NCBI GenBank assembly: GCA_028282685.1
Contig: JANQHK010000026.1
Span: 1-41,187 of the forward strand
DNA: 41,187 bases
Reading direction: 5' to 3'
DNA from: Phycisphaeraceae bacterium
Lineage (GTDB): Bacteria > Planctomycetota > Phycisphaerae > Phycisphaerales > Zrk34
In this document: positions 2,793 to 16,290 of the stretch, one piece after another
Numbering within the stretch: the stretch's first letter is position 1
Layout of the letters: the number at the start of each line of letters is the position of its first letter
Translations under genes and position numbers: made by a program
The notes under the pieces: generated by a model
The model's input: only the letters and a program-made list of their open reading frames with translations
Told to the model about the DNA's origin: nothing
Database searches by the model: none

Positions 2793-4226
2793 TTACTCAC
2801 GCACGCGCGGAATCGTGGCGAGTCGGCTTTCCACCTGAGCCAGCTCCAGGCGGAGTGACTGGGAGCGTTCATGATCGCCGGAATGCATCGCGTGGCGAAG
2901 TTCGTTCTGAAGTGTGGTGCGTACCCCTTCCCAGTCTTGTTGTTGCTCAAACGCTTGCCGAGCACCATGGAGCAACTGGAGTCCAAGGTCTGATTCTCCA
3001 GTTGCCAGCAGTGCCAATCCGGCGTCGGCGTGAACCTGAGGGTATTCGGTAGCACGAGTGGTTGTGGCAGCTTCACGAAGAATCGTTAAACCCTGCCGGA
3101 CCTGTCCGCGTTGCATATGCACCAGGCCGAGTGTCGCCAACGCTTCGGCGCGCAGGTCGGTCTGAGCGACACCAATAAGCATTGACGTTGCAGCACCGTA
3201 CTGGCGTAATGCGACCAGTGCCCGGGCCTGCTTAAGACGGAGGCGGTTGACTGAGGGTTTGCTTCCCGGATCGGTCTCCGCTTCGCGCCAGGCGAGCAAT
3301 GCCGCCTGTGGTGCACCGCGGTCGAAGAGAATGTCACCAAGACGATTACGGATCGACCTCATCGAAGGCGTTCCCGGTGCAGCGGTCGTCATCGGATCCA
3401 TCTTGCTGCCGGTGCGGATCGCCAGGCGCAGGGTGGTCGGATGGTTGATCTGATCGATCACCACTCCTTGTAAGGCCTGTTCACGTAACTGCATTGCCGT
3501 GCCGGTGTCGTTCTGCAATTGCGCAGCGAGCGCCGCGAAGAGGCGCATGCGGCGTGCAACGTGTTCATCCCATCCGTCTGCTTTCGCGGCGGCGGCACGA
3601 AAGACCGAACCGGACGCCTGGGGTTGCCCCATCGCCAACGCGGACTTGCCTCGCAAAGCCAGTGCTTCCACGGCCAGCCAGGGTGAAGCCATATCTGAAG
3701 GCGGTTCCAGATTGGCAAGCGCCTCAAACTGACCGCGGCGTGCAGGTGTCCAGGCCGCTTTGCGTTGACGGTCGTATTGTGCAAAGCGACCGGGATCGGT
3801 GCGACGTGCTTCGATCAGCGCCCGCCAACCGCCCCGGCCGGGCTTGGCTGATTGGTCGAGATACATCGCCGCCAGATCGACCGCGGGATCGGGTGCATTC
3901 CCGGCAGCGGTGACGGTCTGCTCGGCCAGGTCTCGGTATGTCGCGCACCATTGCATGGCATCGTACCACTGGCCCTTGGCAGTGAACTCACGGAGCCGCG
4001 ACATGAACGCATCGCGTGTGAGTGTTCGACCGACCGCTTCACCGAGCACGATCGATTCTCCATCGACCTTCAGCAGTCGATCGGTTTGGCCGCGATCGGA
4101 TGCTGCTGCCACATCGCGGGAGGTGTGCGGGGTGGCGCCGCAGCCGATCAGCAGGAACACGACGATCACGCAGAACGCCGCGCTACCGGCTATCTGTTCA
4201 TGGCGTAATGTTCGTGGATTACTCAT
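2793..4226 (-). CDS. TPR lipoprotein, last gene of the pilus/secretion operon
   Basis: Chosen start is the ATG at 4226, which overlaps the secretin stop (4219-4221) by 8 bp. This gives 477 residues beginning MSNPRTLRH with a signal segment ending in the lipobox LIGC, so it should be a lipid-anchored protein. The frame stays open upstream, but that stretch overlaps gspD and has no signal-peptide logic. The body is helical, Ala/Leu/Arg-rich and TPR-like, clearest in the last 200 residues (repeated LGLVHMQRGQ and AGLALLATGESD elements). TPR lipoproteins of the PilF/PilW type act as secretin pilotins. Its translational coupling to the secretin makes that role attractive, but it is longer than known pilotins, so this is inference. 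Confidence 0.75.
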   Translation of the reverse strand: MSNPRTLRHEQIAGSAAFCVIVVFLLIGCGATPHTSRDVAAASDRGQTDRLLKVDGESIVLGEAVGRTLTRDAFMSRLREFTAKGQWYDAMQWCATYRDLAEQTVTAAGNAPDPAVDLAAMYLDQSAKPGRGGWRALIEARRTDPGRFAQYDRQRKAAWTPARRGQFEALANLEPPSDMASPWLAVEALALRGKSALAMGQPQASGSVFRAAAAKADGWDEHVARRMRLFAALAAQLQNDTGTAMQLREQALQGVVIDQINHPTTLRLAIRTGSKMDPMTTAAPGTPSMRSIRNRLGDILFDRGAPQAALLAWREAETDPGSKPSVNRLRLKQARALVALRQYGAATSMLIGVAQTDLRAEALATLGLVHMQRGQVRQGLTILREAATTTRATEYPQVHADAGLALLATGESDLGLQLLHGARQAFEQQQDWEGVRTTLQNELRHAMHSGDHERSQSLRLELAQVESRLATIPRVRE

Positions 4227-6204
4227 TACCGGTATTCCCATGGAGTGAAGGCGCGGTGTGGTAACGGAAGGTGTCGAACAGCGACCGCTCGAAGGACGGG
4301 GCCTCATCCCTGAACACGCCCCAGTCGTCCTTTGTGCCTTCGCTGCCTCCCTCGCCGGGGCGGTAAGGATGGATGCTCAGTGAGTCGAGGAGATTGCGAC
4401 TGATCGCATCGCCCTCGACGGGTGTGTTCATCACGTAGGGGCGAACCAGAACGACCAGTTCGCTGCGTCGTATCTCTGAGGACTCCCGACGAAACAGGAA
4501 TCCGACCAACGGCAGGTCGCCGAGGATCGGTAACTGCTGTCGCGTGTCGGTTTCGGTTTCTTCGATCAAACCGCCGAAGGCGAGCAGCATTCCGTCGCGT
4601 GCGACGATGGTGCCGCTGGCCGACTGGCTGGCGACCGTATCAATGGATTCGTTGATAAACGACGTGCCGGTGGGCACCAGGATGGTCGCTCCGTCTTCGT
4701 TGACGGTGCTGGTTTCCTGAAGCAGTCGCAGCGTGACGGTGCGGTCGGCGTTGATATTCGCGGTGATCAGCAGGTCGGTACCCACGTCGCGCAGCTCGGT
4801 CACCGGCGTCGAAGCCAGCGTGGTGGTCGCTCCTTCACCGGTGATGACTTGCGGCTCGGTGAAACCGACGACGATGGGAATTTGTTCACCGGAGAAGATG
4901 CGGCTGACCTCGTTGTTCGCCGTCAGGAGGATTGGCGTGGCCAGCGAGGTCACGCGACCTTTGGTCTGGAGCAGTTCCAGTCGCGCGGCAAAGTTGCTGG
5001 AGACGACCTGGAATATACCGGCGCTGGCGCTGACCCCGGTACCGCCGGGCAGGAGCGAACCGCCGGACGGAGCGCCGATCTCTCCCTGGCTGAAGGCGCC
5101 GGAGAGATCGCCCGATTGGAAAGCGAAGTCAAAGCCGGTCTCCAGACCGTCGGAAAGATCGACGCGCAGAACACGCACCTCCAGTAGCACCAGCGGCGTG
5201 GGTACGTCGAGACGTCGGATCACGCTGGCAATCTCTTCGAGTATCTTCGGATCACCCGAGCGCACGACAATTTTGTTGAGCCGCTGGATCGCGGTGACGT
5301 AGGTCAATGCATTACGGTTGGCAATCCGCCGGGCTACGTTTTCAGCGTCGCGGTCTCCCCGCATCGCTTCGATCACGCGCTGTGCTTCGTCTGCGGTCAA
5401 CTCGGGGAGATCTTCGTCGGCCTGAAGACGACGCGGACGGGCGATGTTGTTATCGCGGCTGAATCGCTGCCGATCACGCCTGCTGCTTTCGGTGCTGGAT
5501 GAGGTTGACCGAACGTTCGTGCCGCCGATCGATCCGATCAAGCCGCGGCTGCGCTCCTCGATCAAGTCGAACCGTTTGAAGCGGTCTTCCAGGTCGTCCA
5601 GTGTCTCATCGATCGTGTTGTCGTCTTCGGCGACGACCACGCGATCGCCGAAGACCTCGCCGATCGTCCGGACCACATCGGTGGCGTTGGGGTACAGGAG
5701 TGTAAACACTTCAGTGCGATTGGAGCGCAGCGCTGATACATCTCGGCGTACGTCTTCCGGGCTGGCGAGAATGTAGAGTTCGCTATCGCGATCTTTCCGC
5801 GAGACCAGCCCCTGGGAAACGGCGATGGCTTGCAGGGCGTTTTCCAGGTTGATGTTGCGGATGGTCAGGGTGACTGTACGATCCGCGACGACACTGCTGA
5901 CAACGATGTTGGCGTTGAGGTGCTCGCCGATCGCCTCCGCAACACGCACGAGCGGCGCGTTGACAAATTGCGCGCGGCTGATGCGGCCGTTCTCGCCGAC
6001 CTCGATCTCGACCAATCCGCGGGGTGACTTGGACTGGTTCTTGTCCGTATTTGTCATGAACTCGCGCAACGCTTCGGGCGGTACGGTCGGGTCGTTGGGT
6101 GCAGGCGCCTGCGCTGCAGTGATCGATGCGAGGCAAAGCACCACCGCCAGGAACACCGGGCAGTAACGCGTGTAACGGTTTGAGTTAAAAAGTACTGGAA
6201 TCAA
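4219..6204 (-). CDS. gspD: Secretin, GspD/PilQ family outer-membrane channel
   Basis: Forms the multimeric outer-membrane pore of a type II secretion or type IV pilus machine. The start is taken as TTG at 6204, overlapping the gspF stop by 4 bp (TTGA). It gives 661 residues with a signal peptide ending near ITAAQA; no ATG exists at a sensible place. An STN/N-domain repeat (AEAIGEHLNANIVVSS, TVTLTIRNINLENALQ) lies near residues 60-130, further N1-type modules follow, and the C-terminal secretin domain ends with GGLIEETETD then PILGDLPLVGFLFR, the classic secretin signature. A charged low-complexity stretch (about 215-260) separates the N-modules. The downstream TPR lipoprotein may be its pilotin. 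Confidence 0.93.
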   Translation of the reverse strand: MIPVLFNSNRYTRYCPVFLAVVLCLASITAAQAPAPNDPTVPPEALREFMTNTDKNQSKSPRGLVEIEVGENGRISRAQFVNAPLVRVAEAIGEHLNANIVVSSVVADRTVTLTIRNINLENALQAIAVSQGLVSRKDRDSELYILASPEDVRRDVSALRSNRTEVFTLLYPNATDVVRTIGEVFGDRVVVAEDDNTIDETLDDLEDRFKRFDLIEERSRGLIGSIGGTNVRSTSSSTESSRRDRQRFSRDNNIARPRRLQADEDLPELTADEAQRVIEAMRGDRDAENVARRIANRNALTYVTAIQRLNKIVVRSGDPKILEEIASVIRRLDVPTPLVLLEVRVLRVDLSDGLETGFDFAFQSGDLSGAFSQGEIGAPSGGSLLPGGTGVSASAGIFQVVSSNFAARLELLQTKGRVTSLATPILLTANNEVSRIFSGEQIPIVVGFTEPQVITGEGATTTLASTPVTELRDVGTDLLITANINADRTVTLRLLQETSTVNEDGATILVPTGTSFINESIDTVASQSASGTIVARDGMLLAFGGLIEETETDTRQQLPILGDLPLVGFLFRRESSEIRRSELVVLVRPYVMNTPVEGDAISRNLLDSLSIHPYRPGEGGSEGTKDDWGVFRDEAPSFERSLFDTFRYHTAPSLHGNTGNE

Positions 6205-7445
6205 AGTGCAGCTCCATACAGGGCCATCATGAATGCCATGTAGACGTATCCGACAATACCGCCGACGGCGACCACCACGACGATCTCCAGCACACTGGAG
6301 AGCATCCGGATCAGGGCCGAGAGGCGTTGTTCGTGAAAGGTGGCGCATTCGGCAAGGGTTTGCTCGAGTTGACCCGAGCGTTCACCGGCGGCGATCATGC
6401 TGGAGAGCATGGGCATGAAGGCGCCGCGCGACTGAAAGCCCGGTGACAGCGGGTCGCCGGCCATCACCGCTTCACGGCTGCGTGCGATCGCCAGCGCCAG
6501 CCGACGGTTTTTGTGCAGGTCCTGGCAGGTGCGCAAGCCCTCGATCATTGTGATCCCGCTCGATAGCAGAATCGACAGTGACCGACTGAAAGCCGCGGTC
6601 GCGCCGGTGCGAAGGATGTAGCCGATCAGGGGAATGCGCAGCAGAAAGCTGTCAATCGCCAGGCGTCCTATCGGAACCGAATAGGCAACGAAGAACAGGA
6701 TGATAACCAGCAATGAGACGCCGAGGATCATCGGCCACTCGGTGATCAGGAACTGGCTGAGGTCGACCAGTCGCTGGGTCATCGGCGGCAACGGTCTGCC
6801 CAACGCCTTGAGGTAAACCGTCAGCTTCGGGATCGCATACACGAGAATCACGATGGTGACGGCAATGGCGGCTTTGAGCACGATGGTCGGATAGAGCATG
6901 GCGGAGATGATTTGGGATTTGAGCAATCGACGCCGCTCCAATGACTCGGCGGCACGTTCCAGCACCATGTCGAGTTGGCCGGTTTGCTCACCGATCTCGC
7001 TGAGCTGAGTAACGATGCGCGAGAAGCAGTTGGTGGCACGCAACGACTCGGTAAACGATCGGCCGGTGCGGACATCGGAAGCAATCTGATCCATCACGCG
7101 GCGCATGGAATGACTGGTCGTCTGCTCGGCAATGATGCGCAGCGATTCCAGAAGCGTCAGCCCGCTGCGGAGCAACACACTGATCTGACGCAGCCCCAGT
7201 TCGATGGTTGACGAGCGCGGCTTACTGACTGACCGGGATGACTGGCCGCCGATAGTGCGCGATGTACTGCGTGCACCAGCGCGTTTGTCTTGACCGCCCA
7301 AGGCGGGGCCGACCGGTTCGATCTTGAGGATCAACGCGCCGCGTTCACGCAACAGCGCAGCGGCTGCGCTGAGGTCAGACGCTTCGACGGTGCCTTTGGT
7401 CGATCGCCCGCTGCGTTCACGGATGGCGTAGTTAAAGGTCGACAT
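6201..7445 (-). CDS. gspF: Inner-membrane platform protein GspF/PilC
   Basis: Polytopic inner-membrane platform of type II secretion and type IV pilus systems, which couples the cytoplasmic ATPase to pilin assembly. It has 414 residues, the usual length. The N-terminus MSTFNYAIRERSGRSTKGTVEA is the standard GspF opening, followed by two T2SSF domains (about 75-200 and 280-400), each with LLRSGLTLLESLRI or LLSSGITMIEGLRT and a glycine-rich GERSGQLEQTL motif. Three hydrophobic segments lie near 175-200, 225-250 and 380-405. ATG at 7445 lies 17 bp after the gspE stop, and its own stop overlaps the secretin start. A basic Ser/Arg-rich linker at about 50-75 is longer than in most homologues. Confidence 0.95.
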   Translation of the reverse strand: MSTFNYAIRERSGRSTKGTVEASDLSAAAALLRERGALILKIEPVGPALGGQDKRAGARSTSRTIGGQSSRSVSKPRSSTIELGLRQISVLLRSGLTLLESLRIIAEQTTSHSMRRVMDQIASDVRTGRSFTESLRATNCFSRIVTQLSEIGEQTGQLDMVLERAAESLERRRLLKSQIISAMLYPTIVLKAAIAVTIVILVYAIPKLTVYLKALGRPLPPMTQRLVDLSQFLITEWPMILGVSLLVIILFFVAYSVPIGRLAIDSFLLRIPLIGYILRTGATAAFSRSLSILLSSGITMIEGLRTCQDLHKNRRLALAIARSREAVMAGDPLSPGFQSRGAFMPMLSSMIAAGERSGQLEQTLAECATFHEQRLSALIRMLSSVLEIVVVVAVGGIVGYVYMAFMMALYGAAL

Positions 7446-7462: not shown

Positions 7463-9319
7463 TCAGCCGGTGTTAATAACGTGTCGGAGGACTTCCTCAA
7501 TGCTGGTGTGACCGGCCAGCATCTTCTGAGCCCCATCGTCGGTCAGACGTGGCAGACCGCGCCGCCGCATGTATTCGATGTAGGTTTGTTCTTCGCTGCC
7601 GCGCGCGATCAGGTCGGCAAGTTCGGCGTCGCAGGGCAACACCTCGAACAAACCCATTCGGCCACTGTAGCCGCGGTTGGCGCAATACATGCAGCCCGTG
7701 GCCTGCTCGATCGGTTTGTTTTCCAAATCCTCTCGGCCCAACGCTTCGGCTTGCGCGAGCGTGCAGGTTGTCGGCCTGGAACACCTGGAACACAGGCGTC
7801 GCACAAGACGCTGGGCCATCACCAGTCGGAGTGTTGCACCGACCAGGTAGAGCGGCACGCCCATATCGCGCAGGCGGGTGATGGCGCCGGGAGCATCGTT
7901 GGTGTGTAAGGTACTGAACACAAGGTGACCGGTGAGCGCCGCCTTGACTGCAATGTCAGCTGTTTCCGCGTCGCGGATCTCACCGACCATCACCACATCC
8001 GGGTCGTGACGCAGCGTACTGCGCAATGCCTTGGCGAACGTGACCTTCTCCTTCTGGTCGACCTCGACTTGCGTGATGCCGTCGATCTGGTATTCGACCG
8101 GGTCTTCGATGGTGATCACGTTCAACGCCGATTCCTGGATCAACTGGCGAATCGCCGCATATAGCGTGGTGGATTTACCGCTGCCGGTGGGGCCTGTAAT
8201 AAGGATCAGACCGTGTGGCTTGCGGATGGCATCGTTAAATGAAGCCAATTGTTGTTCGCTCATACCCAATGCGGGCAGTGTCAGTTGATCGGTCTCGCGA
8301 GCGAGCAGTCGCAGCGTGAGTCGCTCACCCTGCTTGGCGGGTAACGACGCGACACGGATGTCAATGTCGAGGTTACCATGTTCGTGGCGCATGCGGCCGT
8401 CCTGCGGCGCTCTGCGTTCGGCAATGTCCAGCCCGGCGAGTACTTTGACCCGACTGATCAGCGCAGCGCCTTGCTCGGGGGCGACTTCAAGAAACGTTTC
8501 AATCTGTCCGTCGATGCGGAAACGAATGCGGATCTCATTCTCGTAGCTGTTGATGTGAACGTCGCTGGCATTCTGCACGACGGCGGCGGTCAGCACCCGA
8601 TCACAAAGAGAGACCGTATCGTCTCCTGTGGTCACGCCGGCATCCAGATCAATTGACAGGCCGCGGTCGAGCGACATTCCGCGGTCAATTGACATGCCGC
8701 GCCTGCCAGCGAAAGCTGGTGTTTCAGGGGCGCCGGCATAGATACGGTCGACCGCCGCGATCAGGCGACCGGGCTCGGCGAGATGGATTTCGGGCGCCAA
8801 GCCATAGAACCGTTGCAGCGAGGTGAGGACACGCGGCTTCGGCATCGCCGAGGCGGCGACCATAACGCGATGCGCATCGCATGCAAACGGCAAGACCTGC
8901 CAACGTTTTGCCCGTTGCACCTCCAAACGAAGCGCCAGCGGCGCATCGATTTTAACTCGGTCGATATCGATCGCTTCCAATGCCACGCTGGGACCATCGG
9001 TCAGCTCCACGCCGAGCGACGCATCGTGACTGGCACCGTCGAGCCAGACGACGATCCCATCGCGCTGAGGCGCACCCTCGATGCCTTCATGCACCAGCGA
9101 CAGCAGAACCTGTTGACCCTTGGCCAGTTCCTCGGGCGTGTCGCTGAGCTTGAGCCGGGCTCCGGTGTCGCTCACATCGACCAGGCAACACCGGATCACT
9201 TGTCCCGATTCGGTGGTCAGATCGATCTCACCTCGCGCGCGGCGACGCGTCGAGTCACGCCGTTCGGTGTTCGGATCGTCTGGTGTTATCGGATGCAGGG
9301 ACGGGTCAGCCGATGTCAT
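7463..9319 (-). CDS. gspE: Assembly ATPase GspE/PilB with N-terminal PilZ domain
   Basis: A 618-residue hexameric ATPase that powers pilin or pseudopilin assembly. Residues about 18-108 form a PilZ-type domain: an Arg-rich start (RRDSTRRRAR, 20-29) and D48-x-S50-x-x-G53 match the RxxxR...(D/N)xSxxG c-di-GMP site. Residues 125-195 resemble the second half of a GspE/MshE N-domain. The ATPase core has Walker A GPTGSGKST (376-384), Walker B DPDVVMVGEIRDAE (439-452), His box STLHTND (469-475) and the zinc tetracysteine C510, C513, C543, C546. Between domains sits a threefold RG(M/L)S(I/L)D repeat (207-224). ATG at 9319 overlaps the pilT-like stop by 4 bp. The PilZ call is from motifs only. Confidence 0.93.
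   Translation of the reverse strand: MTSADPSLHPITPDDPNTERRDSTRRRARGEIDLTTESGQVIRCCLVDVSDTGARLKLSDTPEELAKGQQVLLSLVHEGIEGAPQRDGIVVWLDGASHDASLGVELTDGPSVALEAIDIDRVKIDAPLALRLEVQRAKRWQVLPFACDAHRVMVAASAMPKPRVLTSLQRFYGLAPEIHLAEPGRLIAAVDRIYAGAPETPAFAGRRGMSIDRGMSLDRGLSIDLDAGVTTGDDTVSLCDRVLTAAVVQNASDVHINSYENEIRIRFRIDGQIETFLEVAPEQGAALISRVKVLAGLDIAERRAPQDGRMRHEHGNLDIDIRVASLPAKQGERLTLRLLARETDQLTLPALGMSEQQLASFNDAIRKPHGLILITGPTGSGKSTTLYAAIRQLIQESALNVITIEDPVEYQIDGITQVEVDQKEKVTFAKALRSTLRHDPDVVMVGEIRDAETADIAVKAALTGHLVFSTLHTNDAPGAITRLRDMGVPLYLVGATLRLVMAQRLVRRLCSRCSRPTTCTLAQAEALGREDLENKPIEQATGCMYCANRGYSGRMGLFEVLPCDAELADLIARGSEEQTYIEYMRRRGLPRLTDDGAQKMLAGHTSIEEVLRHVINTG
8651..8704. repeat. Three 18-bp tandem repeats inside gspE linker
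   Basis: Three imperfect 18-bp units (8651-8668, 8669-8686, 8687-8704) encode three successive RG(M/L)S(I/L)D hexapeptides in the linker between the N-terminal regulatory part and the ATPase core of GspE. The length is a multiple of three, so copy changes would keep frame and alter linker length. Confidence 0.75.
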
Positions 9320-10545
9320 GAGCGTCCCCCCTTCGTTCGCCCCGTCGGCCTCCTGTTACCCGCCTGTGAAGTCGTACCGCCGCCCACCAGGTCGTCGTAT
9401 CGCTCGCGTACAATCTCGCCTCGCTTGGCGGCGGCGATTGCGGTGCGCTCGGAGATCACCCCTTTGGCCCACAGCCGCGCCAGGTCCTGCTCGAGCGTCT
9501 GCATGCCCAGCGACCCGCCGGATTCCATCGCGCTGTAGATTTGTGCGCTGCGGCTGGAGAGGATCAGGTGGCTGACCGCCTGGGTGACCATCACCACTTC
9601 GCTGGCCACCACACGTGTATGCCGTTTCTCTTCGGGGCTGTTCGAGTCATGAGCGATTGCCGCATCACCGTCAGCCACCAGCAGCCGCTGGTTCACCACG
9701 GCACGAAGCACCAGCGCCAGTTGCTGGCGGATCGCGTCCTGCTCGTCGGCAGGGAACACACCCACCATGCGTTCCACCGTACTGACGCAGTCGCTGGCAT
9801 GCACAGTAGTAAACACCAGGTGCCCGGTTTCGGCAGCCGTGATCGCGGTGCGGATCGTGTTGGCATCACGTATTTCGCCCACGAGAATCACATCGGGATC
9901 CTGACGCAAGCTCGCAACCAGCGCCTCGTTGAAGCTGCCGGCGTGGGGGCCGACCTCGCGCTGATTCACCAGCGCCTTGGCCGACTGATGTACGTACTCC
10001 ACAGGATCTTCGATCGTGATGATATGGCAGGGATGCTGCCGGTTGATGCGATCGATCAGCGTGGCCAGCGTGGTGCTCTTGCCGGCGCCGGTTGCACCGC
10101 TGACCACCACCAGGCCGTAGGGAAGATCGCACAGGTTGTACAGTTCCTCGGGCAAGCCCAACTCGGACAGTGAACGGAAGCGATCCTCCAATCGACGCAG
10201 AGCGATCGCCAACCCGCCTGCACGCTGGTAGATGTTGAATCGAAATCGCGTCCCATCGGGCGCGGAGAACGAACCATCGGCACTACCCGCTGTCTCGATA
10301 TCGAATGACGGGCGGAGAAACCGGACGATCTCGAGCATGAGCGCCCGCTCGGTTGGCGGTTGGCAACCGATGCGCTGCAGCGGCCCATGCACGCGCAGGC
10401 ACGGCGTATGCCCCTCGATCAGATGAAGGTCGCTGGCGTCATGACGGACGCAGTCGGCCAACAGGACCGCTAATTCCTTAGGGCATTGGCCATTGGACTG
10501 ACTGCCCGGTTCGATGGTGTGATCGGGTTGCCCGGCCTTGCTCAT
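9316..10545 (-). CDS. pilT: PilT-like retraction ATPase
   Basis: Twitching-motility-type ATPase that depolymerises pili. ATG at 10545 overlaps the PilO-like stop by 4 bp (ATGA), giving 409 residues starting MSKAGQPDH; the open frame further upstream is not needed. It shows the PilT opening DCVRHDASDLHL (31-42), a PAS-like beta module with FRFNIYQRAGG, Walker A GATGAGKST (150-158), TIEDPVEYVH (177-186), Walker B DPDVILVGEIRDA (216-228) and TTVHASD (246-252). The tetracysteine of GspE proteins is absent, as expected for PilT. The C-terminal 40 residues are a basic extension. With a GspE-type partner next door, the operon has both extension and retraction motors. Confidence 0.92.
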   Translation of the reverse strand: MSKAGQPDHTIEPGSQSNGQCPKELAVLLADCVRHDASDLHLIEGHTPCLRVHGPLQRIGCQPPTERALMLEIVRFLRPSFDIETAGSADGSFSAPDGTRFRFNIYQRAGGLAIALRRLEDRFRSLSELGLPEELYNLCDLPYGLVVVSGATGAGKSTTLATLIDRINRQHPCHIITIEDPVEYVHQSAKALVNQREVGPHAGSFNEALVASLRQDPDVILVGEIRDANTIRTAITAAETGHLVFTTVHASDCVSTVERMVGVFPADEQDAIRQQLALVLRAVVNQRLLVADGDAAIAHDSNSPEEKRHTRVVASEVVMVTQAVSHLILSSRSAQIYSAMESGGSLGMQTLEQDLARLWAKGVISERTAIAAAKRGEIVRERYDDLVGGGTTSQAGNRRPTGRTKGGRS

Positions 10546-11141
10546 GAACGCCCACCTTTCAGCGGAGCAGCCGCGGCTGAAACGTTCATCCGCCATCGTC
10601 GCAGTGCGGTACGCTGACTGATGGCTTCCATCGTCAGCGAATCGATCCACAGGCCCGGCGGAACCAGCGAAACATCGCTCAGCGCCGATTCCATCTGCGG
10701 CCAACTGCCCATCAGTGTCAGCGCCCAAACCCGGCGCGCGTTTGTATCACCGGGCGTTGCTTCTTGGACCACTTCCGTGGCGACCAGCGCGATCTTCTGC
10801 TGTTCGAGGTGGTCGATCAGGTGCTTGAACCGCTGAGCAATCGGCGGTGCGGAGTCGCCGGTTGTTCCAGATGGGAAACGAATCTCGGCGATCTCTGCGC
10901 GGGTTTGTGCAAGTGTCTGTTCCATCACTTTTAAGGTCTTGTCCAGTTCAGAGCGTTTACGACTCAGCGTTGCCATCTGTCGATGAACCTCCTCATCGCT
11001 GGGCGCCGCTTTGACCTGTTTCTCGAGTTTGGCCCGTTTGGTCGCACCCATGGGCACGATGAACGAGGCAATCGCGATCAACCCCGCCGGCAACAGGGCG
11101 AGCAACCAACGCTCTCGATTGGTGAGTGGGCGCTTGTTCAT
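10542..11141 (-). CDS. PilO/GspM-like alignment subcomplex protein
   Basis: A 199-residue bitopic protein: short basic cytoplasmic start (MNKRPLTNRERW), one membrane helix at about 13-30, a coiled coil (about 35-90, rich in Lys/Glu/Gln) and a ferredoxin-like C-terminal domain. This is the architecture of PilO and GspM, which link the inner-membrane platform to the secretin through PilP/GspC. Sequence identity to named families is too low to decide between them. It overlaps both neighbours by 4 bp (ATGA at 11138-11141 and at 10542-10545), showing tight coupling. Role assigned by topology and position. Confidence 0.75.
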   Translation of the reverse strand: MNKRPLTNRERWLLALLPAGLIAIASFIVPMGATKRAKLEKQVKAAPSDEEVHRQMATLSRKRSELDKTLKVMEQTLAQTRAEIAEIRFPSGTTGDSAPPIAQRFKHLIDHLEQQKIALVATEVVQEATPGDTNARRVWALTLMGSWPQMESALSDVSLVPPGLWIDSLTMEAISQRTALRRWRMNVSAAAAPLKGGRS

Positions 11142-12664
11142 TTGTCCCTCGTCATTCTTCTGTTCACCCGTGCAGCTTTTGGCTGCGCCCGATGCAACCC
11201 GACGGGCTCAACGAGAATGCTGAACTGCCAGGCCACCGTGTCAAACCCGGCAACGGGTGTGAGTTTCGCCGGATACACGATCCAATGCTTACTCAGTGCC
11301 TCGCTGATCCGTTGGTTAAAACCAACGGCTGCCGCCGGTGATGTGGCAACACCCTCGATCCGGTGTGAAGGGCTTTGAGCTGTCAGCGTGTGCACGACCT
11401 GATGGTCGTCCGATGCATCGGCCAATGCATCAAGCAGTGCCGCGATACGGGGTCGCATGTCAATCGCTCTCGGTTGGCTGGCGAGCCGCTGCTGGCGGGC
11501 CTTCTTCTCTCTTGCCAACTCGTTGGCCAGTTTCTGCTGCTCCTTCTTTACCCGTTGCTGCTCGATCTCCAGCTTCCTCACTTCATCTTTGAGTGCGGAA
11601 ATCGCTTGCATGTCCTTGTTGGTGTGCCCGGTGATTGACTCCAGTTCCGCGATCGTGGATTGGTTCTGCACGTACTGCAATCCGACGACCAATCCGACGA
11701 TTAACGCCGCAGCCACGCCCACCGCAATCTGCGCCCACGGGCCAGTCGGCAGCTTGGGCTTTCGGATGACCGCGACGGTTGGCTCTTCGGCAGCAAGTCG
11801 CTGCACCCAGCAGGTGGCAAATCGTTCCAACGCAGTATCACTGGAAAGATCCAGAGCCGAAGTGACCGGCTCCTTCGAATCGCCTTGCTCAACGGACCAA
11901 CGAGCGCGCGGACTGCCCTGGGTTGGTTCGAGCATCGCTCCGCCGCGCGGTTTCACGCCAGGGCCGACCAGGTATTCAACTCCGGCCGAAGGGTCGTCTG
12001 CGTCCGTCACCGCGATCAACGATTTGACCGTACGACGCCACTCGACCGTCGGGAGCATCCCGGTCGGATGCACCTCGCACCGATCGTGGCTCATGTTGAC
12101 CACGACAACACCGTCCGGCCAGAACTCCACGCGTGACCAGCGTTTCGGTCGCGGCGTCTGGTACTCTGCTGTAGCTTGCCCGGTGTTCGCATCAAGATTG
12201 AGCGGCTCGGGCAATCCGGCAGGATGCAACAATCCCTCGAATGTGCCGCCGCGTTTCTTCACCATCGCAGCAATGGCAATCAGTTCCTCGCGCGGCGCCT
12301 GGGTCGCCAGGAAACGCTCATCGCCATCGGTCCGCATGCGCTTGGCTGAGGTGATGGATTCCAATGCCGGCAGCCCCCCCGCCGCCTCGGCTTCGTAACC
12401 CGCCGCCTCGCTCAGTTCCGCATCCGAAAGGCCAACCGTGGCCCCGGGCGGCATGTCGACCTCGCCAAGCCACAACCGATCGCTCATCACCCAGACGCGT
12501 TTGCCGACCTTACCGGAGATCATCATCGCCGCATCGATCTGTTGATCGAATGTCGCGTCGATCGATTCGCCTTGCTTGATGGAAACGGCAGCATTGCCGT
12601 CAAGATCGGCTTGGATCCAGCGGTCACCGGTGATCAGAATGAGTGTGGTCGACGGTCGGGGCAT
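11138..12664 (-). CDS. PilM-PilN/GspL-like inner-membrane protein
   Basis: A 508-residue protein combining a cytoplasmic domain and a periplasmic PilN-like part, as in GspL. Residues 1-290 resemble the actin-like fold of PilM/GspL (start STTLILITGDRWIQADLDG). A single membrane helix lies at 309-331, a highly charged coiled coil at 335-393 and a ferredoxin-like PilN-type domain at about 400-495. In known systems this protein recruits the GspE/PilB ATPase and dimerises with the PilO/GspM protein encoded immediately downstream. ATG at 12664, 44 bp after the stop of the preceding pseudopilin. The phosphate-binding motifs of true PilM are not evident, which favours GspL. Confidence 0.78.
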   Translation of the reverse strand: MPRPSTTLILITGDRWIQADLDGNAAVSIKQGESIDATFDQQIDAAMMISGKVGKRVWVMSDRLWLGEVDMPPGATVGLSDAELSEAAGYEAEAAGGLPALESITSAKRMRTDGDERFLATQAPREELIAIAAMVKKRGGTFEGLLHPAGLPEPLNLDANTGQATAEYQTPRPKRWSRVEFWPDGVVVVNMSHDRCEVHPTGMLPTVEWRRTVKSLIAVTDADDPSAGVEYLVGPGVKPRGGAMLEPTQGSPRARWSVEQGDSKEPVTSALDLSSDTALERFATCWVQRLAAEEPTVAVIRKPKLPTGPWAQIAVGVAAALIVGLVVGLQYVQNQSTIAELESITGHTNKDMQAISALKDEVRKLEIEQQRVKKEQQKLANELAREKKARQQRLASQPRAIDMRPRIAALLDALADASDDHQVVHTLTAQSPSHRIEGVATSPAAAVGFNQRISEALSKHWIVYPAKLTPVAGFDTVAWQFSILVEPVGLHRAQPKAARVNRRMTRDK

Positions 12665-12708: not shown

Positions 12709-13644
12709 TTACTGTCCTTCCAAGCTCAGGTCTGGCCAGTTCGTTCCGCCGGTGATGACCGTCACACGTCGCGCTTCACTTTTGGGGTGTGCGGTCAGGT
12801 CATCGGTCAGCAAGGGTGCGGTCGAAGAGTTCCATTGGTACGCCCTGAGCAGTTTGGGGCCGATCGCCACAGCATCCGGCGTAAAATCCACCGTAATGGT
12901 TTGCGTGGCACCCAAGGTTCCCTGGTGGGCTTGGCTCTGAGCCACCACCGCCGCCGTGCCGTTGTCAGGCCCATACACGCGGACAACCACATACTGTCCC
13001 TGGGTCGGCGATGCCGGCAGTTCAAACTGGACCTGCAAACTCAGAACGCCGGTCGTCAGGTCGATTCCTTCACCGTCATCGACAAACACCACGTCGTCCA
13101 GTGTCACGTCAAACGTATCCCCGACACCTGATCCGGCGCTGCTGATCGCACCGATCACATCGCTGGCTTGGTCCACAGTCGTCCCATCACGATGAAACAG
13201 GTCAAAAGGCTGACTCCACCCGTCACGGATTTCATCGGAGCCAATCGGCCAGCGGATGTACGGACCGCGCCACCCACACGCCAACTCCAGATCGTCATCA
13301 AGTCCCGTTAACGGTTGAAGCGCAAAGGTGGCCGGCGGCGTGGCTGTCGCTTCGCGATCCCAAAGTTCAGCCAGGTCGAGGTCCGTTCCCGCTTCAGGCA
13401 AGCGACCGACGTCAGCCACGAATCCCGGCGGCACGGCAGTCGGGTCTTCACCGGGCAGCGTTGATCGACCGACGATGCCGTCGCGTAATGACTCCAGTGA
13501 CAGGGCTGTCGAATCAAATCGCGCCTGGTCGGTCAGCCCGGCGGTCTGGGTAATCACCGCGGTGCCCACCGTGGCGAGAATGATCAGCACCACCACCATT
13601 TCGATCAGCGTCAAGCCCATTTGTCTTCCGGTGCGACTGCTCAT
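12709..13644 (-). CDS. Type II/IV pseudopilin, 311 aa
   Basis: The N-terminus RQMG then LTLIEMVVVLIILATVG is a class III prepilin signal: Gly at -1, Glu at +5, followed by a hydrophobic helix. The leader is only 10 residues. The remainder is a large globular head (about 280 residues) rich in Asp, Thr and Gly, ending WPDLSLEGQ. Size and position as third pseudopilin of the operon suggest a minor pseudopilin (GspK/GspJ-like role), but this cannot be assigned. ATG at 13644 overlaps the upstream pseudopilin stop by 4 bp. It needs a prepilin peptidase, which is not encoded in this window. Confidence 0.88.
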   Translation of the reverse strand: MSSRTGRQMGLTLIEMVVVLIILATVGTAVITQTAGLTDQARFDSTALSLESLRDGIVGRSTLPGEDPTAVPPGFVADVGRLPEAGTDLDLAELWDREATATPPATFALQPLTGLDDDLELACGWRGPYIRWPIGSDEIRDGWSQPFDLFHRDGTTVDQASDVIGAISSAGSGVGDTFDVTLDDVVFVDDGEGIDLTTGVLSLQVQFELPASPTQGQYVVVRVYGPDNGTAAVVAQSQAHQGTLGATQTITVDFTPDAVAIGPKLLRAYQWNSSTAPLLTDDLTAHPKSEARRVTVITGGTNWPDLSLEGQ

Positions 13645-14354
13645 GGAAATGGATCCTCCCGTCGCAGGTAGAGCACGACGTCATCGTTCTTCTGTGCCAC
13701 TGTCGGCGTCAATACGTTTGTGGGCGTATCGAGAATGCCATCGGGGCCAGCACTGACCAGACGAACCGCTTCAACTTCCTCATCCGTGATGGAACCGCTG
13801 ACCGTATTCGGCAACTGAATGACAATGGGATTAAACCACGCATCCAAGGGCGCGCTGTCATCGTCTTCGCCGTAGCTGGTCGTAAAGCCCCGGGTTGCGT
13901 CGACCACGTAACGGCCGGTCGATCCGATGTCGAGCCATGCGGCGCGCCAGCCAACCCGGTAGTGAGGGTCGTAGGGTTCGATACTGCCCGGCGACGTGAA
14001 CAGGAAGTAGAGTTGAGGATGATCCACCCGTCCGCCCAGGATATCTGCGGAGCTGGGCCAGGGCAGGCCGGCGCCGTATCCCACAATCGTCCCGCCGGTG
14101 TTGCGCGCGTGCTTCATCAGTTCCGCGTAACCTCCGCTGCCGGAGATCGCATCGCGCACCCGGTAGAGCGTTTCATCGGTCGTGACGGATCGAGCATCGT
14201 CCGTTGTCTGATCGAACATCGGCACCAGCAATGTACCTAATGCAACCAGCGCGACAAGCACCACAACCAACTCGATCAGCGTCAGCGCGGCGGCACGATG
14301 TCGGTGCGGTCCATTGCACCCGGAGTATCGTGATGGTGTTGATTTGTGGACCAT
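13641..14354 (-). CDS. Type II/IV pseudopilin, 237 aa
   Basis: Contains the prepilin motif LTLIELVVVLVALVALG after a basic leader (HRHRAAA); the residue at -1 is Ala instead of Gly, which prepilin peptidases tolerate but which is uncommon. The start is uncertain: ATG at 14354 gives a 23-residue leader, while a TTG at 14369 is also in frame, and neither has a Shine-Dalgarno sequence. The globular part contains acidic and Gly/Tyr-rich loops. Its stop overlaps the next pseudopilin start (ATGA). Functional position among minor pseudopilins cannot be settled. Confidence 0.85.
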   Translation of the reverse strand: MVHKSTPSRYSGCNGPHRHRAAALTLIELVVVLVALVALGTLLVPMFDQTTDDARSVTTDETLYRVRDAISGSGGYAELMKHARNTGGTIVGYGAGLPWPSSADILGGRVDHPQLYFLFTSPGSIEPYDPHYRVGWRAAWLDIGSTGRYVVDATRGFTTSYGEDDDSAPLDAWFNPIVIQLPNTVSGSITDEEVEAVRLVSAGPDGILDTPTNVLTPTVAQKNDDVVLYLRREDPFP

Positions 14355-14443
14355 GTCGTCGGTTGACAAAAACGGAAAATGCCGCCCCGTGATCCCCTAG
14401 AGCACGGGACGGCTCAGTTGAATAAGGAGTCCAGTCAGTCGGC

Positions 14444-15250
14444 TTAGTTGCCGTGAACTTCCTGCCAGTGGATACCGATGTGATTATCACCGGTCTCGAA
14501 CAAGTCGCCGTCGATGCAGTAGCTGACGCGGCGGAACTTGGCCATGGGGTTGCCGCTCGCATCGGCCACCTGGAAGATCGCGCCGAAGCGGGAGTAGGAC
14601 TGGTGCGGCAGGGCGCCTTCGGTGTCGCCGAAGTGCGACGGCGGCTCGGGAGTCAGTTCGCCCAGCAACGTCCAGGTCTTATCGATACCCAGCCAGATGT
14701 ACTTCTCGCTGCCACCGGTCTGCAGGTAGATCAACTCGGCCTGCGTGTCGGTCAGGACGATCACGTCGGTTGTCGCACTGAGCGTCTCGGCTGTCAGGCC
14801 CGCGTTGAACGTCACATCGTAGTCGGCAGCCGCCGGGTCACCGTGGTTGTAGACGGTGGTGATGCCGAGGTCGTTCAATGCGGTGACTTCATCGGTGGCC
14901 AGGTTGCCGACTGCCAGTGTGCCACCCGTGCCGCCGTTGGCGTAACCGCCACCATCGGTGTTCGCCGACGAATTGTTGACCGGATCATCTGCGCCGGCGC
15001 CAACGCCGAACACGCCGGTCGTCCAGCCATCACCGAACTCGCCGCGGGTCGCCTCGGCGGTGATCAGCATCTTGGTGACTTCCGGGTAGTTGCTGGCGCA
15101 GGTGGCCACGTGGGATCGGGTCAGCGCGTTGCCGATCACGGGCACGAGCAGGCCGCCAATGGCGACCAGGATCGTCAGCACAACGACCAGCTCGATCAGG
15201 GTCAGGCCGGCCTGGCGGGCGCGGCGCGAGGACATAGCGGAATTAGACAT
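14444..15250 (-). CDS. Type II/IV pseudopilin, first gene of the operon
   Basis: A 268-residue protein beginning MSNSAMSSRRARQAG, cleaved before LTLIELVVVLTILVAIGG (Gly -1, Glu +5). The ATG at 15250 is chosen because a perfect GGAGG (15259-15263) lies 8 nt upstream; the frame stays open further upstream (to about 15460) but has no start signal. The head contains a Gly/Asn/Asp-rich stretch (about residues 75-105) and two Cys near the start and end (CASNYP and YCIDGD) that could form a disulfide. The strong ribosome binding site and first position suggest the most abundant subunit, but it is large for a major pseudopilin. 206 bp separate it from dtxR; no clear promoter was seen there. Confidence 0.9.
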   Translation of the reverse strand: MSNSAMSSRRARQAGLTLIELVVVLTILVAIGGLLVPVIGNALTRSHVATCASNYPEVTKMLITAEATRGEFGDGWTTGVFGVGAGADDPVNNSSANTDGGGYANGGTGGTLAVGNLATDEVTALNDLGITTVYNHGDPAAADYDVTFNAGLTAETLSATTDVIVLTDTQAELIYLQTGGSEKYIWLGIDKTWTLLGELTPEPPSHFGDTEGALPHQSYSRFGAIFQVADASGNPMAKFRRVSYCIDGDLFETGDNHIGIHWQEVHGN

Positions 15251-15456
15251 TTGAGAAACCTCCTTGCATCGCCCGTCTGCCACCGTACGACCATTCTTCT
15301 GGCCGCGCGCGTCGGAACACCCGACACGATCCACGGAATGCAACCTTAAGGCGTGCATCAGTTTTTTGACTTGAAGCTGATCCAGGGACGCCAGTCCGCA
15401 GACTTGCCGGCTGCGAAGCGTCGTCGGCCCGGGCTGTAGTGTTAAAACGTAGTTCA

Positions 15457-16290
15457 TCACATGGACTCATTTCGTGTTGCTTCGTCTTTGTTATTGATTT
15501 CGTCGTTGGCCTGGATACGTGCGGCAACAAGTCCCTGGACGGGTTGGACCAATACCTTTCCCGCCTCCTCAATCGCTAACTGTTCGTGGTAACCTTTGAG
15601 TTTGATCTGCATCGTGCGCATGTCGTTATCGATATGCTCGATTTCGATGACGGCCCCGAGTTGCGCACCGATCTGGCGAAACCTTTCTTTCATCGGCGAG
15701 TCATCATCGACTTTGATCAACACCAGCCGATCACCGACGCCATACCGGGCAAGAGAAGGTCGAAGCTGTGCCGCTTCGTTGCCCTGCTCTGTCGTTTGCG
15801 CATCTTTGTCAGCTAAGCACAAGTCACAATCACCAGAACAGGCATCGTTGTCGCAGTGGTAGCCAAAGTCCTTGATCCAGGCCGTACCGCTCTGCGGGCA
15901 GCGCTCGACGAACTCAATGAAGGCAATCAGGCGGTCCAGAATGGTGTCGGTCACCGAGTGTTCCATCGCACCGGCTGCGGCATCGGCTTCCTCGGAATCG
16001 ACCGAGAGCACCCGGACAAAAAAGTCACGGATGACCTCATGCCGACGCACCAATTTCCGGGCCACGGCCAATCCTGCCTCGGTCAGCGTAATCACGTCAT
16101 ACGGGGCGTAATTCACAATTCCTTTTTCTGAAAGGGTTTGCAACGCCGCGGTTACGGAGGACTTACCAACCTCCATCCGCTCGGAGATATCCTTGGCCCG
16201 GGCGGCTTTCTTGGAATTGGAAATCCAGTAAATCGCCTCGACATAATTTTGGAGACTTGCCGTAAGTTCATATTGGAAAATCGCTTGCAT
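15457..16290 (-). CDS. DtxR/MntR family metal-dependent repressor with Cys-rich insert
   Basis: A 277-residue iron/manganese-type regulator. Residues 8-75 are the winged helix (YVEAIYWI, AKDISERMEVGKSSVTAAL), 76-130 the dimerisation/metal domain with E110-H111 matching a conserved metal-ligand pair, and about 180-255 a FeoA/SH3-like C-terminal domain (YGVGDRLVLI, RFRQIGAQLG). Unusual is a cysteine cluster C131, H145, C146, C151, C155, C158, suggesting an extra metal or Fe-S site; similar Cys patterns occur in some DtxR relatives as far as I recall. The ATG at 16290 has its own promoter and a palindrome upstream. It lies directly upstream of the pilus operon on the same strand, so it might control it. 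Confidence 0.9.
   Translation of the reverse strand: MQAIFQYELTASLQNYVEAIYWISNSKKAARAKDISERMEVGKSSVTAALQTLSEKGIVNYAPYDVITLTEAGLAVARKLVRRHEVIRDFFVRVLSVDSEEADAAAGAMEHSVTDTILDRLIAFIEFVERCPQSGTAWIKDFGYHCDNDACSGDCDLCLADKDAQTTEQGNEAAQLRPSLARYGVGDRLVLIKVDDDSPMKERFRQIGAQLGAVIEIEHIDNDMRTMQIKLKGYHEQLAIEEAGKVLVQPVQGLVAARIQANDEINNKDEATRNESM

What the first reader, a model, noticed from the sequence alone, without database searches (positions are those of the whole stretch)
7463..9319. PilZ domain fused to the GspE/PilB assembly ATPase
Seen: an Arg-rich start and DxSxxG (D48, S50, G53) before a truncated MshEN-like half-domain and a full ATPase. Known: PilZ and the MshEN domain both bind c-di-GMP in other proteins, usually on separate chains or as a tandem MshEN. 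Here a PilZ domain seems to take the place of the first MshEN half, giving a direct c-di-GMP input into the motor.
Basis: partly seen in the sequence, partly recalled or inferred. Interest (0 to 1): 0.62.

Follow-up and report, generated by a model that had tools for sequence, protein, structure and literature searches.

The report
PilZ sensor fused to pilus/secretion motor
In this bacterium, one protein joins a sensor domain for the signalling molecule c-di-GMP directly to the motor that builds pilus or secretion filaments; two distant relatives share the design and every expected signal-binding residue, so one chain probably both senses the signal and drives the machine.

Summary
The 618-aa protein at 7463-9319 (-) carries a complete PilZ domain (Pfam 36.0 bits, cut-off 22.5, residues 19-113), the C-terminal MshEN subdomain (114-198) and an intact GspE/PilB ATPase. 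AlphaFold predicts a six-stranded barrel whose best solved matches are c-di-GMP-binding PilZ domains. R21xxxR25 and D48xS50xxG53 are present. One correction: the c-di-GMP-binding half, MshEN_N, is missing altogether; what remains is the other half, which in relatives docks to the stator.

The fusion is not an accident of this contig. Two relatives, one in another order and one in another class of the phylum, carry the same PilZ-MshEN_C-ATPase chain and keep R20, R21, R25, D48, S50 and G53, although the PilZ part is only 31% identical between the closest pair. Eight further members of the 11-protein orthologue clade lack PilZ and also lack MshEN_N, so stepwise replacement is not shown. I found no report of this architecture in the open-licence papers searched.

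Most likely it is a c-di-GMP-responsive assembly motor: a cis version of the PilZ-PilB pair of Xanthomonas, but with a PilZ that should bind the ligand. Binding and its effect on the motor are untested.

The parts
7463..9319 (-). PilZ-MshEN_C-T2SSE fusion protein, 618 aa (assembly ATPase of GspE/PilB type)
8981..9265 (-). PilZ domain, residues 19-113
   Evidence: Pfam 36.0 bits; own-genome PilZ scan gives the same coordinates; six-stranded barrel, pLDDT about 85-95 over residues 21-110; Foldseek and VIA-align top matches are PilZ domains
9245..9259 (-). RxxxR motif R21-D-S-T-R25
   Evidence: invariant in 48 PilZ domains and in three fused proteins
9161..9178 (-). DxSxxG motif D48-V-S50-D-T-G53
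8726..8980 (-). MshEN_C (ND1) subdomain, residues 114-198; MshEN_N (ND0) is absent
   Evidence: Pfam MshEN 35.2 bits; no 24-residue c-di-GMP motif; confident helix/strand fold with three strands in the full-length model
7484..8611 (-). T2SSE ATPase (N2 domain and motor), residues 237-612, with Walker A 376-384 and zinc Cys 510/513/543/546
   Evidence: invariant columns in 45 homologues; Foldseek best GspE/PilB/PilF
9316..10728 (-). PilT-like ATPase gene upstream, overlapping the fusion gene by 4 bp (ATGA)
   Evidence: T2SSE 150.8 bits; same overlap in G495, G223, G081; synteny
6201..7445 (-). GspF/PilC platform protein
   Evidence: Pfam T2SSF 168.9 bits; conserved neighbour
4219..6348 (-). secretin
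   Evidence: Pfam Secretin 117 bits; conserved neighbour
10542..11141 (-). GspM-like protein
   Evidence: weak T2SSM_b; the G005 gene in the same position hits T2SSM weakly; synteny
11138..12664 (-). putative GspL/PilM-like stator protein
   Evidence: position and synteny; Pfam only gives a weak PilN hit, so the name is inference
12709..15460 (-). three genes of (pseudo)pilin type
   Evidence: N-terminal methylation motif in two, one over and one just under its cut-off; all three have syntenic homologues

Best explanation
It is the assembly ATPase of a T2SS/type IV pilus-like machine whose N-terminal c-di-GMP sensor is a canonical PilZ domain instead of MshEN_N. Shown by sequence and predicted fold: a PilZ barrel with both binding motifs, MshEN_C directly after it, a complete motor, a machine operon, and the same architecture in two other genomes. 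Inferred: c-di-GMP binds RxxxR and DxSxxG, the N-terminal Arg loop closes over it, and PilZ shifts against MshEN_C. MshEN_C is the subdomain that in relatives docks to the stator (GspL/PilM) and in Xanthomonas citri is the face that a separate PilZ grips. Ligand would thus change how the hexamer docks or fires. By analogy with MshE of V. cholerae I expect c-di-GMP to favour assembly, but the direction is a guess.
For: PilZ, MshEN and T2SSE each pass their Pfam cut-offs in one ORF, and again in the fused homologues of G495 (31.0, 33.5, 385 bits) and G885 (37.4, 49.2, 413 bits). The AF2 model of residues 1-118 has six strands (31-36, 41-49, 53-58, 70-76, 85-94, 101-106), mean pLDDT 83. Its 29 Foldseek matches with E <= 1e-3 are PilZ-domain proteins or complexes holding one, including 8u0i (PA0012 with c-di-GMP, TMt 0.85); VIA-align Z reaches 12-14. 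Across the three fusions R20, R21, R25, D48, S50 and G53 are kept, while the PilZ part is only 31% identical between the two closest, against 66% in the ATPase. The genome has 11 GGDEF and 3 EAL domains, so c-di-GMP can be made and degraded. X. citri PilZ makes extensive contacts with ND1 of PilB (PMC8389850). The operon is conserved around the orthologues as far as their contigs reach.
Against: No binding or activity data. The spread of the PilZ fusion is patchy: 3 of 11 orthologues. The relative placement of PilZ and MshEN_C was not predicted, because the full-length alignment had no PilZ depth and most of its PilZ part came out under pLDDT 50. In one published case c-di-GMP binding to a PilB (C. 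perfringens PilB2) did not change ATP hydrolysis (PMC11656802).
Confidence: 0.72

Rival explanations
1. The PilZ domain is a structural clamp only. It folds against MshEN_C and stabilises the hexamer, as the non-binding PilZ of Xanthomonas does for PilB in trans, and c-di-GMP plays no part.
For: X. citri PilZ binds PilB ND0/ND1, does not bind c-di-GMP itself and stabilises a partly disordered domain. MshEN_N, a possible packing partner of MshEN_C, is missing here.
Against: The residues kept across the three fusions include exactly the ligand residues, and the nearest folds are ligand-binding PilZ domains. Orthologues with neither PilZ nor MshEN_N exist, so a clamp is not needed for the motor.
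Confidence: 0.17
2. PilZ senses c-di-GMP but acts by bringing the motor to a partner (diguanylate cyclase, stator or pole) and does not change ATPase activity.
For: In X. citri the PilB, PilZ and FimX proteins co-localise at leading poles, and PilB polar localisation falls without FimX.
Against: No partner is visible in the operon: no GGDEF, EAL or FimX-like gene among the window ORFs scanned.
Confidence: 0.08
3. Assembly or gene-boundary artefact: a separate PilZ gene and a GspE gene read as one, or the real start lies at an internal GTG/TTG (codons 104-114), so the motor is made without PilZ.
For: Internal GTG/TTG codons lie at the junction, and eight orthologues start at or close to MshEN_C.
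Against: The same fused frame recurs in two other genomes with the same junction. The ATG has a strong purine stretch upstream and the conserved 4-bp overlap with the upstream gene; the internal codons have neither.
Confidence: 0.03

Closest known systems
MshE of Vibrio cholerae (MshEN-type c-di-GMP-binding assembly ATPase, Wang 2016, PMC5013675)
   Same: One chain with an N-terminal c-di-GMP receptor, MshEN_C and the T2SSE motor.
   Different: The receptor is MshEN_N (two 24-residue motifs, helical bundle) in MshE and a PilZ beta-barrel here; MshEN_N is absent here.
PilB-PilZ-FimX complex of Xanthomonas citri (PMC8389850)
   Same: A PilZ domain works with the ND1/MshEN_C part of the assembly ATPase.
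   Different: There PilZ is a separate chain that does not bind c-di-GMP and FimX carries the ligand; here PilZ is fused and has both binding motifs. X. citri PilB also keeps ND0.
EpsE/GspE of Vibrio T2SS (1p9r, 4pht)
   Same: N terminus without ND0, ATPase about 45% identical, Foldseek top match.
   Different: No PilZ domain; no c-di-GMP input of its own that I know of.
BcsA cellulose synthase and other enzyme-PilZ fusions
   Same: PilZ on the same chain as the machine it controls; best structural match to the PilZ model.
   Different: PilZ is C-terminal in BcsA and the effector is a glycosyltransferase.

Membership tests
PilZ domain (c-di-GMP-binding, canonical) | Pfam PF07238 above the gathering score | tested here: met
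   36.0 bits against 22.5
PilZ domain (c-di-GMP-binding, canonical) | RxxxR and (D/N)xSxxG motifs | tested here: met
   R21xxxR25, D48xS50xxG53
PilZ domain (c-di-GMP-binding, canonical) | six-stranded beta-barrel | tested here: met
   six strands in the model, PilZ structures as best matches
PilZ domain (c-di-GMP-binding, canonical) | binds c-di-GMP | not testable with these tools
   needs ITC or DRaCALA
GspE/PilB assembly ATPase | T2SSE motor with Walker A/B, His boxes and the zinc Cys motif | tested here: met
   423.9 bits; motif residues invariant with 44 homologues
GspE/PilB assembly ATPase | lies with GspF and secretin genes | tested here: met
MshE-type c-di-GMP-binding ATPase | MshEN_N with two 24-residue motifs | tested here: not met
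   relaxed motif of Wang 2016 absent; MshEN_C only
Stand-alone PilZ adaptor of Xanthomonas/Pseudomonas type IV pili | separate chain that does not bind c-di-GMP | tested here: not met
   fused, and both ligand motifs present; binding itself not tested

The most novel reading that the evidence does not exclude
A lineage of PilT-paired T2SS/T4P-like machines has, in some members, a canonical PilZ domain at the head of its assembly ATPase in place of MshEN_N. c-di-GMP then controls the motor directly through PilZ-ND1 contact: a previously undescribed input into the GspE/PilB family, and a natural cis version of the PilZ-PilB complex.
Probability: 0.55. Interest if true: 0.6.

Novelty: new variant of a known kind. 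Interest (0 to 1): 0.52.

Why it matters
How c-di-GMP binding at the N terminus of GspE/PilB motors is passed to the ATPase, and what PilZ does for PilB, are described as poorly understood in the cited review (PMC11656802). A protein where a canonical PilZ sits next to the stator-docking subdomain on one chain, with natural orthologues that lack it, removes the need to rebuild a three-protein complex and gives a ready with/without comparison. It also suggests that different c-di-GMP receptors can occupy the same place on the same motor.

Tried and rejected
Long ORFs with PilZ hits in the order were read as possible further fusions; they look like HD-GYP-PilZ proteins, antisense or extended frames, or other PilZ proteins, not ATPases. 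A combined PilZ plus MshEN alignment was misaligned by MAFFT and was not used for folding. The single-sequence N-terminal query over 301 genomes found only MshEN_C parts, and the genome-contig scan returned 80 ordinary PilB/GspE loci matching from residue 69 or later; fusions appeared only with profiles. phmmer of residues 1-236 finds no PDB chain above noise, so the PilZ claim rests on profile and fold. Plasmids gave no fusion among the ten best rows listed (places start at residue 114 or later), and viral contigs none. One origin of the three fusions is not rejected (p-AU 0.154); the tree puts G000 with G495 (100/99) and leaves G885 unresolved, so neither one gain plus losses nor two gains is shown. 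The literature library holds open-licence papers only; the PilZ review of Galperin and Chou (2020) was not held under the DOI tried, so a listing of this architecture there or in Pfam/InterPro cannot be excluded.

Full report
Observation. The ORF at 7463-9319 on the minus strand encodes 618 residues. Pfam gives three domains above their cut-offs: PilZ at 19-113 (36.0 bits), MshEN at 114-198 (35.2 bits) and T2SSE at 237-612 (423.9 bits). A genome-wide PilZ scan finds the same segment, window 8981-9265, among five PilZ domains of this genome.

Fold test. Residues 1-118 aligned with 47 PilZ domains from this and related genomes were folded by AlphaFold2: mean pLDDT 83, six strands between 31 and 106. 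All 29 Foldseek matches at E <= 1e-3 are PilZ proteins or complexes holding one, among them PA0012 with c-di-GMP (8u0i, TM 0.85 by target), VCA0042, YcgR, Alg44, MapZ and BcsA. VIA-align gives Z 12-14 for BcsA, VCA0042 and 8u0i, well above the unrelated rows at about 7.

What is missing. Wang et al. 2016 (PMC5013675) place both 24-residue c-di-GMP motifs in MshEN_N (VcMshE 1-62). Their relaxed motif is absent here, and the full-length model shows only the MshEN_C fold, residues about 111-200, at high confidence. The PilZ part of that model is unreliable, because its alignment held no PilZ domains. The layout is PilZ - MshEN_C - N2 - motor. The residues invariant among 45 PilB/GspE homologues, which include the catalytic motifs, are kept.

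Homologues. A profile of the MshEN_C plus ATPase part separates a sharp orthologue group (695-950 bits, next best 468); a profile that includes PilZ extends it through the phylum. In all, 1,791 genome scans were made, with repeats. Eleven members were collected and form a clade at 100/100. Three carry PilZ: the window, G495 (same class, another order) and G885 (another class of the phylum). The two homologues also pass the Pfam cut-offs for all three domains. G005, G223, G081, G400, G895, G970, G769 and G870 have no PilZ and start at or close to MshEN_C. No member of the group shows MshEN_N, so the sequence data do not show PilZ displacing MshEN_N step by step.

Conservation of the site. Between the window and G495 the PilZ part is 31% identical, MshEN_C 56% and the ATPase 66%, yet R20, R21, R25, D48, S50 and G53 are identical in all three fused proteins. 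The junction lies at the same place in all three, ahead of the D-[IL]-D-x-V-x-I-D segment.

Gene context. The operon is (pseudo)pilins - GspL-like - GspM-like - PilT-like - PilZ-GspE - GspF - secretin - TPR protein, conserved around the orthologues as far as their contigs reach; G005 lacks the PilT-like gene. The window gene starts with ATG overlapping the stop of the PilT-like gene by 4 bp; the same overlap occurs in G495, G223 and G081, and a GGGGGG stretch lies just upstream. This supports the long start. The genome has 11 GGDEF and 3 EAL domains.

Mechanism (inference). In X. citri a separate PilZ binds the ND0/ND1 region of PilB, with extensive contacts to ND1 (PMC8389850), and in the T2SS the N-terminal domain of GspE docks on GspL (review PMC11656802; PMC8389850). 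Here a PilZ with intact ligand motifs is tethered to ND1. I infer that c-di-GMP closes the N-terminal arginine loop and alters PilZ-ND1 or ND1-stator contact, and so motor docking or activity. The sign of the effect is unknown.

Literature. Searches for PilZ with GspE, T2SSE, MshEN, fused or fusion found no report of this architecture. The library is open-licence only, so I claim 'not found', not 'unreported'.

Taxon.

Noticed in passing
window 9316-10728 (-): A PilT-like (retraction-type) ATPase gene overlaps the assembly ATPase gene by 4 bp, inside an otherwise T2SS-like operon with GspL/GspM-like proteins and secretin. The pairing is conserved over much of the clade; G005 has no PilT-like gene between GspM and GspE.
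   Followed up: partly
window 15457-16290 (-): DtxR/MntR-type metal-dependent repressor with a C-terminal FeoA domain directly upstream of the pilin genes; a weaker homologue lies near the G495 operon on the opposite strand.
   Followed up: no
G000 contigs C108, C92, C131, C126, C80, C120: The genome has at least eight GspE/PilB-type ATPases in 2.9 Mb, two of them with at least one match to the relaxed 24-residue c-di-GMP motif, so MshEN and PilZ receptors may serve parallel machines.
   Followed up: partly
window 2793-4307 (-): TPR-containing protein that follows the secretin gene and keeps this place in G495, G081, G223 and G769; possibly an assembly factor.
   Followed up: no
L134, L135, L136, L139: Proteins that read as HD-GYP with a C-terminal PilZ recur in family f2 of the same order (HD-GYP assigned by eye, not by profile).
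   Followed up: no
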